In this document: one piece after another, positions 35,383-54,833 of the stretch | Position numbering within the stretch: position 1 is the first letter of the stretch | Layout: every line of letters starts with the position of its first letter | From: Calycina herbarum | Taxonomy: Eukaryota > Ascomycota > Leotiomycetes > Helotiales > Pezizellaceae | NCBI GenBank assembly: GCA_001414485.1 | Contig: LLEY01000142.1 | Location: forward strand, 124,001-188,000 | Length of the DNA stretch: 64,000 bases | Direction: 5' to 3' | Translations under genes and position numbers: made by a program | The notes under the pieces: model-generated | Databases searched by the model: none | What the model was told of the DNA's origin: nothing | Seen by the model: only the letters and a program-made list of their open reading frames with translations

Positions 35383-36669
35383 ATGACAACCCCCACCCTC
35401 CAACCGCAAACCTCCCAACCAACAACAAAAGACCCAACCTTTCGCCTCTACACCCCCTCCCAGGCTCACCAATACGCCACCTCCCGACCATCCTACCCCC
35501 CTACCCTTCTAAAATTCATCATCGACCACCATGCTTCAACAGGCGGTCAATTCGGAAAATTCCTAGATGTAGGATGTGGACCTGGGAATGCAACGAGGGA
35601 TTTGGCGGGGTACTTTGATGAAGCGGTTGGAGTGGATGCTGGGGAGGCTATGATTTCAAAAGCTAGGGAGATTGGTGGGAAGACGAGGAATGGGGGAGGT
35701 GTGAGGTTTTTGGTTTGTGAGGGGGAGAGGATTTCTGGGGTTGAGGGGATGATGGAGGAGGGGGAGGGTAAGGTGGATTTAGTTGGTGTTGCTAGTGAGA
35801 TCTTCGCTTTCGTTTTTCTGTTTGGAAGTTGGGCCAGGGGTTGGGTAGTCGAAATGAAGACTTGCTTCTCCAACTCTGCAGTGTTGATATTATCTCGCTA
35901 ACCCCGTAATTCCAGCTGCAGTAAGACTCCTCGCTCGCTCGCTTACCAACCCCCTAACACTACAAAGGTCCACTGGTTCGACATGCCCAAATTCTACGCC
36001 GAAGCTGCAAAAGTCCTAAAGCCAGGAGGAACACTGGCAATATGGACACGAAGTACCCTCCTCCCTTCCTTCCTTCCCGACTCTTCTTAACCTTACTAAC
36101 AATCACAAGTCTCCTTTTTAGCAGGTGGAATCCCAGGTAAACCTTTCTCCCGAAACCCCAACTCCATCTTTCACATTGAACAGCTTTAATAAACATGATT
36201 AGATCCTGAATCACAACACCCCATCGAACTCACAAACTTAATTCGAGATTTCAGAAATGTAACACTTGGTCCGTATGAATTACCGGGAAATAGATTGGTG
36301 GGAGATTTATACGATAACTTACAGCTCCCTTGGGATGTGACTCCAACCGTTCCTTCTCTCCCTCAATCACATTTCAAGAAATATGATTTTGATCGCGGGG
36401 GAGCTTGCGACGAGAACAAAGGTCTAAGCAACGACGAAGCTGGAAAGATATCAATGGCCGAAAGACAAACAATAACCCTCCAGCAAGCAGAGAAGAAATT
36501 ATCAACCGCCAGTCCGGTTACGCGATGGAGAGAGGCACATCCGGAGTTAGCTGGGACGGAGAGGGATTGTCTGAGGGTATTTATTGAGGAGTTGAGGGGG
36601 ATGATTGGGGGGGAGGAGTTGGTTGATGGGTTTGCTACGACGGTTTTGTTGTTTAAGAAGGTTGGTTGA
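35383..36669 (+). CDS. TMT1/Crg1-like SAM-dependent methyltransferase with micro-exons
   Basis: Five exons are proposed: 35383-35794, 35916-35920 (5 nt), 35968-36052, 36122-36136 (15 nt, or 12 nt from 36125) and 36203-36669. They total 984 nt (327 residues). The fold is class I methyltransferase: FRLYTPSQAHQYATSRPSYP lead-in, motif I LDVGCGPGNATRDLA, motif II acidic VDAGEAM, then DLVGVATAVHWFDMPKFY and LKPGGTLAIWTR. The AVHWFDM block is diagnostic of the trans-aconitate methyltransferase/Crg1 family, and it only appears if the 5-nt exon CTGCA is used. Both flanking introns (121 and 47 nt) have GT donors, CTAAC branch sites and AG acceptors. The substrate is unknown; relatives methylate small acids or lipids. 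Confidence 0.85.
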
Positions 36670-52950: not shown

Positions 52951-54833
52951 TCAAGTACGCAACGATGTTAAAGATCTCCATGAGAGTAGCTTTGTCTTTG
53001 GTTTCAAGCTGCGGGGACGAGCGTGCTTTTTCGAAATTGGAGGTGAAAGGTCTTTCTTTCCTTTATTTGTCTTCGTTTCAATGACAGGAACCGGAGTCTC
53101 CGGTAAGTATTGCGCGAGTATGAAAGTCTCGGAGCCGTTCGATGAATAAAGCTTCTTCGGGGGTATACTCAAAGCATGATCAGAAGATACACCCCCCAGC
53201 GAGCCTTTCGGCAGGTATACCGATAGATCATTTCCCTTCTGCAAATCACCGTTCATCGGGGCTTCGTTTCTCAAGGGAATGCCTCGGATGACCAACGCAC
53301 GCTCTGGTTGAAGAAAAGTCTCCGCCAGGAAAGCCAAAAAGGTATCAATATCAGCAATCGTCGTCATGGCACCCAAGCTTGCCCTTACAACACCCATTGG
53401 CTTTCCTTGGATGACTTCCAGATCTCCGGATTGTCCACATCGATATCCAGATGACCAGGCGCGTTTGAACTGCCAGGGTTCTACTCTGAGATGACTTGCT
53501 ATTCCGCCCGGGTTGCAAAGTCCGCCAGAACGAAGATAGATCTGCTTCTCGTTTGCTAAGCTTTCGACCATGGAGTGCCCGATGTACTTCCCATGCTCAT
53601 CGAGGATATTGAAAGCCACTGTCGCTCCTTGGGTCTTCGGATCGTTATACGGGGAACAGCCGTGTTGATCATTGTAAATGATGCATAAAGGACGGCTATT
53701 CGAATGATGAAGTTTCGCCATTCTTTGATATAATCTCTGGGCAAGAAAACTCGTGTGCTGAGAGATCATCTTCATCGATCCATATAATCGCTTATGGACT
53801 CTCATCGCGCAACCAAGGGCAATGATGTTATGAAATGGCAATGTCCCATCCTCAAGAGCATCATGGATAGAAGTATCTTTCCTCTGAACAGTGGGAGGAA
53901 ACACCGTCAACGCACTCACAGTTCCACCACCAAAATATCTTCTCCAAGATAAAATATGTGCTGAAGAGCGTCGTACAATGAGAGCTCCCAGATCTGGGAA
54001 TCCGAAGATCTTGTAGAAAGATATAGCCGTGAAATCTGGTGCGGAATCTGGGTCATTGAAGTCGATTAGGCAGTTTGTTGCCAATGCTGCTGCGTCGAGG
54101 AGAGAGTAGGTGTTTTGGTGTGAGGATAATGGGGATTTTCGAAGTCGTCCTGTCCAGGAGGAAAGGGGCAAGCGACGACCGGTCATATTCGATTGTCCTG
54201 GGTAGGCGAAGAGCCCTGGGATTTCTCCCTCTTCTCTTGTATTGGAGAAGCGAAGCTTCCCATCTAACCATTTCTCAACTTCTTCATCACTGCAAAAGCA
54301 GTGATGTTCACCGCCCGTGAACTCTCTCACGCCCACTAAGCTGGTATGTGCATCTTTATGGTAGCCATACCAGAAAGACCCCTTAGTTAAACTTGTCGAA
54401 AGATCTCGAAAGGAGTCCGCAACGAGTTTGATAGCTGCTGTGGCATTGGAGGTGAAAACCAAATCGAAATACTCCGGGTCAGCATTGAAGAATCTCAAGG
54501 CTTGCTCTCTGGTTTCGTCTAACTGGATACTTGATAGTTGAGCGGGATCGGAGAAGGAATGTGGGTTTCCGTAAAGATTTGAGATCATGGACTGGGAGAA
54601 TTCGTCAATTAGAGATTTGGCGTAGAGAGTTGTGCCACCGTGGTCAAGGTATGTCTTATCTGGGTTTGGGGTCAGTGAATGCTCGTAGCGGTGGGGTGAT
54701 GTGATTGTAATGGTCGTAGTTGATAGGTGGGCATCGGGCAGTGAAGTATGCTAAAGGAAAGCAGGAGACTCTTACTTTTAAGCATGGGGTATTCGCTATC
54801 TCGAAATTCTTCAACGGCTTTGTTGTATGCCAT
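52951..54833 (-). CDS. molybdenum-cofactor-sulfurase-like aminotransferase class V protein without MOSC domain
   Basis: Two exons, 54833-54776 and 54659-52951, give 588 residues. The NifS-like PLP fold is clear. It includes EYPMLKNKTYLDHGGTTLY at the start, TSNATAAIKL, YSLLDAAAL (PLP-ring Asp about 208), SFYKIFGFPDLGALIVRR with the Schiff-base Lys about 236, YFGGGT, and LRSGGLCNPGG with a candidate sulfur-carrying Cys about 401. These match Mo-cofactor sulfurases (HxB/Mcs/MOCOS), which sulfurate aldehyde oxidase and xanthine dehydrogenase. Full-length family members also have C-terminal MOSC domains; here the protein ends in a basic Ser/Lys/Pro tail. No MOSC-like coding sequence is visible downstream. 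It may be a paralogue with a different acceptor. Confidence 0.82.

What the first reader, a model, noticed from the sequence alone, without database searches (positions are those of the whole stretch)
35795..35967. 5-nt micro-exon (CTGCA) required in a TMT1-like methyltransferase gene
The open frame of exon 1 ends at GVA plus one base and the next coding block starts VHWFDM. Only the five bases 35916-35920 fill the gap, giving GVATAVHWFDM, the family consensus. The intron before (121 nt, GTGAGA, CTAAC, CCAG) and after (47 nt, GTAAGA, CTAAC, AAAG) are both well formed. Micro-exons this small are rare and usually missed by gene predictors, which would call a frameshift or truncated protein.
Basis: partly seen in the sequence, partly recalled or inferred. 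Interest (0 to 1): 0.75.

Follow-up and report, generated by a model that had tools for sequence, protein, structure and literature searches.

The report
Five-letter exon in fungal methyltransferase gene
A fungal enzyme gene appears to need a separate five-letter exon to keep its reading frame; the same genome seems to hold other tiny exons, so the find is very probably real but belongs to a known kind.

Summary
The window belongs to a 68.8 Mb Helotiales-like fungal genome. A 327-aa SAM-methyltransferase gene runs 35383-36669. Exon 1 stops at GVA plus one base, exon 3 starts at VHWFDM, and CTGCA (35916-35920) supplies "TA". Of 712 open splice solutions enumerated, this scores best against the family profile (392.5 against 382.7 bits next). 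In 20,000 dinucleotide shuffles, none gave a 5-nt exon with family residues and equal splice signals. Skipping it or retaining either flanking intron truncates the protein at 171-172 aa.

Relatives suggest its origin. Four apparently unspliced relatives have intron 2 without intron 1; two Lachnellula models read into an intron-1 donor at the same site and phase. Likely, a new intron landed 5 nt upstream of an old one; the exon's length in Lachnellula is unresolved.

The same genome shows two consecutive 8-nt exons in a protein disulfide isomerase gene, a 12-nt exon in transaldolase and a 7-nt exon in an FAD monooxygenase. Fungal exons down to 1 nt are published (PMC12940212). New member of a known kind; no transcript evidence was available.

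The parts
35383..35794 (+). Exon 1 (412 nt, ends in phase 1 after GVA): start codon to the SAM-binding half of the methyltransferase
   Evidence: Open frame and Pfam Methyltransf_11/25 match; start codon chosen by homology
35795..35915 (+). Intron 1 (121 nt, GTGAGA / CTAAC / CCAG); no other copy found in the genome
   Evidence: Splice signals; only one genomic match; two Lachnellula models read into a donor at the same place and phase
35916..35920 (+). Micro-exon 2, CTGCA (5 nt): completes the Thr codon (A|CT) and gives Ala (GCA)
   Evidence: Best of 712 splice solutions; 0 of 20,000 shuffles under the strict rule
35921..35967 (+). Intron 2 (47 nt, GTAAGA / CTAAC / AAAG), phase 0
   Evidence: Splice signals; relatives read through a 48-51 nt intron at the same place
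35968..36052 (+). Exon 3 (85 nt), VHWFDM...LAIWTR
36053..36121 (+). Intron 3 (69 nt, GTACCC / CTAAC / TTTAG; tandem acceptor TAGCAG, so it could also end at 36124)
36122..36136 (+). Probable second micro-exon, exon 4 (15 nt; 12 nt if the second AG is used), TGGIP
   Evidence: Spacing matches WTRASGFPDP in a relative; not frame-required, and a model with poorer splice sites scores 2.5 bits higher, so less certain
36137..36202 (+). Intron 4 (66 nt, GTAAAC / TTAAT / ATTAG)
36203..36669 (+). Exon 5 (467 nt, including the stop codon)

Best explanation
35916-35920 is a real, constitutive 5-nt coding exon of a TMT1/CRG1-type SAM-dependent methyltransferase gene. Two ordinary GT-AG introns flank it and are very probably removed one after the other by intron definition, since acceptor and donor sites 5 nt apart are too close to be bound at once (inference). 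The exon supplies the TA of the VA(T/M)A(V/A)HWFDM motif and keeps the frame. It most likely arose when a new intron (intron 1, phase 1) was gained 5 nt upstream of an older phase-0 intron (intron 2) in the lineage leading to this fungus and Lachnellula. Shown here: the sequence, frame, splice signals, best-scoring solution, intron 2 without intron 1 in apparently unspliced relatives, and the shared intron-1 donor site in two Lachnellula models. Inferred: actual splicing in cells, its order, and the gain event.
For: Best of 712 solutions by about 10 bits. Strict null 0 of 20,000. 110 of the 120 listed hits (of 866 found) have exactly two residues, mostly MA (54) or TA (43), between VDLxxxA and (A/V)HWF. 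The in-genome paralogue L004 is open across this site with the same spacing, AGQAAHWF. The five skip, retention or shifted-acceptor isoforms tested around this exon stop at 169-172 aa instead of 327. Intron 2 is seen in apparently unspliced relatives: P0280 VAMA|VGWIYGCWNGRLSVLQ|AHWF (48 nt), P0244 (51 nt), and P0289 and P0290 entering a GT at the same point. The Lachnellula models P0020 and P0035 read VA|SMDFL, that is A|GT ATG, an intron-1 donor at the same place and phase; P0020 also shows a 48-nt VSIETYLFSLLLLISK insert before VHWF. The tree groups the window gene with Amylocarpus, next to Lachnellula (97/88), with P0280 outside that group (root placed at the midpoint only). The same genome carries other tiny exons, including two consecutive 8-nt exons spelling the PDI active site.
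Against: There is no RNA evidence for this gene. The family profile was built from homologues that already have the XA spacing; the 10 others were left out. The Lachnellula models do not settle the exon's length: both read 'LA' just before intron 2 or exon 3, which does not fit a simple full retention of intron 1 with a 5-nt exon, and only two of the five Lachnellula hits show the donor. In the Botrytis models seen, VDLITVAMA is contiguous, so intron 1 is probably absent there. P0283, which appears to read into a later intron, has no intron at this point. The motif CTAAC-N4-24-CAG-N1-15-GTAAGT is not enriched genome-wide (87 against 144 in the reversed control), and inside the window a simple intron motif is no commoner than in reversed sequence (6 and 7 against 5 and 8), so motifs alone prove nothing.
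Confidence: 0.93

Rival explanations
1. One intron with an unusual donor or acceptor; no micro-exon.
For: 32 single-intron open solutions exist; the best joins 35805 to 35968 and scores 380.3 bits.
Against: 12 bits lower; needs a GCTTTC donor and puts SEIF in place of TA. The next three single-intron solutions need GTTTTT, GCTAGT or GTTGCT donors.
Confidence: 0.04
2. Pseudogene or assembly error: the frame really is broken here.
For: A direct join of exons 1 and 3 is out of frame and stops at 172 aa.
Against: The other exons are open and conserved to near the last residues. A small indel cannot supply the missing conserved dipeptide. Both introns have full canonical signals.
Confidence: 0.02
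3. Stwintron (an intron nested in an intron): the whole 173 nt is removed in two steps, leaving no exon.
For: An acceptor AG lies 5 nt from a GTAAGA donor, an arrangement that resembles nested introns (recalled).
Against: Removing all 173 nt breaks the frame and loses two residues kept in 110 of 120 listed relatives.
Confidence: 0.01
4. The micro-exon is real but works as a switch: inclusion gives enzyme, skipping or retention gives a truncated product or decay.
For: The five non-inclusion isoforms tested truncate at 169-172 aa; a glucose-controlled 20-nt exon is known in Trichoderma (PMC11121469, passages read).
Against: No regulatory evidence; the splice signals look canonical.
Confidence: 0.1

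Closest known systems
1-nt exon of CYP621A in Fusarium (PMC12940212; parts 1 and 2 of 3 read)
   Same: Tiny exon inside a conserved protein motif, needed for frame, missed by predictors, inferred from phase mismatch and homologues
   Different: 1 nt, a P450, confirmed by RNA reads in two species; here 5 nt, a methyltransferase, no RNA
Microexons (2-10 aa) of Phanerochaete chrysosporium P450 genes (PMC1184071; three passages read)
   Same: Very short fungal coding exons between short introns
   Different: Shortest 6 bp; basidiomycete
Xlr2 20-nt microexon, Trichoderma virens (PMC11121469; passages read)
   Same: Filamentous ascomycete, unannotated microexon in a conserved domain
   Different: 20 nt and switched by glucose; here 5 nt and probably constitutive
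Plant microexons of 15 nt or less (PMC8831610; listing and start of abstract only)
   Same: Conserved, often misannotated
   Different: Plants; RNA-seq based
Yeast TMT1, trans-aconitate 3-methyltransferase (PDB 3g5t)
   Same: Homologous class I methyltransferase, aligned without a gap across the micro-exon site (VECAHWFDF)
   Different: Substrate of the window protein unknown

Membership tests
Micro-exon (internal coding exon of 15 nt or less) | Flanked by spliceosomal introns with canonical signals | tested here: met
   GTGAGA/CTAAC/CCAG and GTAAGA/CTAAC/AAAG; the genome's intron motif is 1,250 against 242 control
Micro-exon (internal coding exon of 15 nt or less) | Needed for frame and conserved residues | tested here: met
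Micro-exon (internal coding exon of 15 nt or less) | Same exon in orthologues | tested here: inconclusive
   Intron-1 donor in two Lachnellula models and intron 2 in several relatives, but exon length there not resolved and no relative's DNA was available
Micro-exon (internal coding exon of 15 nt or less) | Transcript reads across both junctions | not testable with these tools
   No RNA data for this genome
TMT1/CRG1-like SAM methyltransferase | Class I methyltransferase domain and homology to TMT1 | tested here: met
   Pfam PF08241 E 9.3e-15; PDB 3g5t E 2.4e-17
TMT1/CRG1-like SAM methyltransferase | Methylates trans-aconitate | not testable with these tools
   Two NCBIfam trans-aconitate 2-methyltransferase models match far below cut-off (25.4 and 20.3 bits against 297 and 320); no model for the 3-methyltransferase appears in that table
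Stwintron | Entire compound intron removed, no exon left | tested here: not met
   Frame breaks and TA is lost
Introner-type intron gain | Intron sequence present in many copies | tested here: not met
   One match genome-wide at E up to 10; old, diverged copies would be missed

The most novel reading that the evidence does not exclude
Micro-exons of 3-12 nt are a sizeable, unannotated class in Helotiales core genes, created by gain of a second intron a few bases from an old one; this methyltransferase catches the step, with intron 2 alone in outgroups and both introns in the window and Lachnellula clade.
Probability: 0.4. Interest if true: 0.5.

Novelty: new member of a known kind. Interest (0 to 1): 0.36.

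Why it matters
Gene predictors miss such exons and report wrong proteins: 10 of 120 listed hits of this enzyme lack the normal junction here. The case also suggests a simple birth route for micro-exons, intron gain beside an existing intron, that can be placed on a tree. The same fungus has apparent tiny exons in core genes such as protein disulfide isomerase, so its annotation would need micro-exon-aware tools.

Tried and rejected
Single-intron and GC-donor models, a nested-intron (stwintron) reading and introner-type origin were considered and rejected. A genome-wide motif for micro-exons was not enriched over its reversed control (87 against 144), so motif counts were not used as evidence; a full two-intron motif inside the window matched only at 35898 on the real strands and once in reversed sequence, and a simple intron motif was not enriched in the window (6 and 7 against 5 and 8). 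Of the 87 rows, 79 loci were inspected (80 rows; two rows share one locus) and 7 rows, copies of one repeated sequence, were not fetched. A simple filter kept 18 structures at 15 loci; 12 loci were tested for open frames. To my eye seven read as genes (L008, L031, L035, L037, L063, L071, L083) and five failed or stayed unclear (L007, L012, L048, L050, L086); L022, L054 and L069 were not tested. Reading the Lachnellula micro-exon from protein models failed: 'LA' before intron 2 or exon 3 fits no simple retention. In one search, 34 of 50 new hits matched the junction pattern; of the 16 misses, by my reading 9 keep the two-residue spacing with other letters and 7 are truncated, mis-spliced or read into introns. 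The first transaldolase join was one base off at the first donor and was redone. Other window genes were scanned for context only.

Full report
What is there. The window is G000:C49:124001-188000 of a 68.8 Mb, 379-contig genome. The nearest named relative of a neighbouring protein (window 52951-54588, minus strand) is Hymenoscyphus albidus at 74%, and the best hit of the gene in question is Amylocarpus encephaloides at 55%, a Helotiales species. The gene has five exons: 35383-35794, 35916-35920, 35968-36052, 36122-36136 and 36203-36669, giving 327 aa. Pfam gives a class I SAM methyltransferase, and the closest solved structure by sequence is yeast TMT1, 3g5t, E 2.4e-17.

Is the 5-nt exon needed? 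I listed the open splice solutions with GT or GC donors, AG acceptors and introns of 40 nt or more, none to two introns, between exon 1 and exon 3: 712 in all, 32 of them single-intron. The profile came from those of the 110 normally spaced homologues that have 281-344 residues, so it is partly circular; the 10 others were left out. The micro-exon model scored best, 392.5 bits; the next two scored 382.7 and each uses a GC donor; the best single-intron model scored 380.3 with a GCTTTC donor. Joining exon 1 to exon 3, or retaining intron 1 or intron 2, stops the protein at 171-172 aa; using the AG 6 nt further on stops it at 169 aa.

Could it be chance? Shuffling the interval while keeping dinucleotides gave a 5-nt exon with a family residue pair in 365 of 20,000 cases, with branch sites in both introns in 8 of 20,000, and with the full signals seen here in 0 of 20,000. 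Any frame-restoring exon of 1-30 nt with the full signals occurred in 2 of 5,000. The branch motif CTAAC is this genome's own: GTAAGT-N20-45-CTAAC-N4-24-CAG occurs 1,250 times on both strands against 242 for the reversed control. In the small window itself a looser intron motif is not enriched (6 and 7 against 5 and 8).

What relatives show. Of the 120 listed hits (866 found), 110 have exactly two residues at this point, chiefly MA (54) and TA (43); 10 lack the normal junction: five Botrytis, three Lachnellula, one Cudoniella and one Aspergillus heteromorphus; P0069 is disturbed more widely. A second search gave 50 new hits, 34 with the pattern. Among the rest, four apparently unspliced contigs read straight from (M)A into an intron: P0280 for 48 nt and P0244 for 51 nt back into (A)HWF, P0289 and P0290 until a stop. 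All four have VDLxxxAMA in one piece, so they have intron 2 and no intron 1. The Lachnellula models P0020 and P0035 instead continue VA|SMDFL, which is A|GT ATG, an intron-1 donor in the same phase as in the window; P0020 also carries a 48-nt insert starting with Val and ending with Lys before VHWF, as a retained intron 2 would. On a tree of 47 rows the window gene pairs with Amylocarpus (99/98), this pair joins Lachnellula (97/88), and P0280 falls outside that group (midpoint root). The simplest reading is that intron 2 is old and intron 1 is a later gain 5 nt upstream. Against it: Amylocarpus' own gene structure is unknown, the Botrytis models show no sign of intron 1, P0283 (which appears to read into a later intron) has no intron here at all, and the residues 'LA' just before intron 2 or exon 3 in both Lachnellula models do not fit a simple retention, so the exon length in Lachnellula is open. 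Intron 1 has no other copy found in the genome.

Second micro-exon. Exon 4 (15 nt, or 12 with the second AG of TAGCAG) fits the family spacing WTR-TGGIP-DP, but it is a multiple of three, can be skipped in frame, and a rival model with a poor GTGGAA donor scores 395.0 against 392.5. It is probable, not proven.

Is this gene special? A motif search (CTAAC-N4-24-CAG-N1-15-GTAAGT) was not enriched (87 against 144), but inspecting 79 loci found clear cases. L071, a protein disulfide isomerase gene, has two consecutive 8-nt exons, TTTACGCA and CCATGGTG, which spell FYAPWC of the active site LVLAEFYAPWCGHCK; leaving out either or both breaks the frame, and the spliced protein aligns without a gap to solved PDI (9tpa). 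L083, transaldolase, has a 19-nt and a 12-nt exon and aligns without a gap to yeast YGR043C. L031, an FAD monooxygenase, needs a 7-nt exon for frame, though the Pfam match is below the curated cut-off (19.3 against 22 bits). L008, a laccase-like gene, has two apparent 3-nt exons; from NTN onward the join aligns without a gap with solved McoG (5lww), but laccase 3sqr needs a one-residue gap there, and 3-nt exons are not frame-required. L063 (polyketide synthase, 17 nt) and L037 (glucose-6-phosphate dehydrogenase by my reading, 21 nt) have longer small exons; L035 reads well with a 13-nt exon but was not checked further.

Mechanism. Shown: sequence, frame and signals. Inferred: in fungi with short introns, splice sites are paired across the intron, so the two introns can be removed one after the other even though an acceptor and a donor 5 nt apart could not be used at once. 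A study of splice-site pairing by intron definition in Schizosaccharomyces pombe (Romfo 2000) is cited in PMC11121469; I saw only the reference line.

Known or new? Exons down to 1 nt in Fusarium (PMC12940212; parts 1 and 2 of 3 read), 6 bp in Phanerochaete (PMC1184071; passages), 20 nt in Trichoderma (PMC11121469; passages) and many in plants (PMC8831610; listing and start of abstract) are in print. No paper on this exon appeared in the listings of nine searches of the held library, two of them capped below the number found. It is a new member of a known kind. The most useful new part is the probable birth route and the sign that this fungus has several such exons in core genes.

Noticed in passing
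L071 (G000:C349:201422-202260): Protein disulfide isomerase gene with two consecutive 8-nt micro-exons, TTTACGCA and CCATGGTG, coding FYAPWC of the active site; both needed for frame.
   Followed up: yes
L083 (G000:C376:20111-20945): Transaldolase gene with a 19-nt exon followed by a 12-nt exon GTGATTTTGCTT; gapless alignment to yeast YGR043C.
   Followed up: yes
L031 (G000:C104:31418-32244): FAD-monooxygenase-like gene that needs a 7-nt exon TGGATTG for frame.
   Followed up: partly
L008 (around G000:C3:82391-82413, minus strand): Laccase-like gene with two apparent 3-nt exons (ATA, CCG) in a row between canonical introns.
   Followed up: partly
L063, L037 and L035: 17-nt exon in a polyketide synthase ketoacyl-synthase domain; 21-nt exon (FPALFGL) in a gene that reads like glucose-6-phosphate dehydrogenase; possible 13-nt exon in L035.
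   Followed up: partly
window 36115-36124: Tandem acceptor TAGCAG before exon 4: 15-nt or 12-nt exon, both in frame.
   Followed up: partly
G000, 10 rows: The repeated string CTAACTAATCAGACGTAAGT on ten contigs (L022, L085, L086 among them), probably part of a dispersed repeat; it mimics a micro-exon motif.
   Followed up: no
public models P0015, P0020, P0023, P0026, P0035, P0041, P0047, P0053, P0069, P0084: Annotated proteins with intron read-through or lost residues at or around the same junction.
   Followed up: partly
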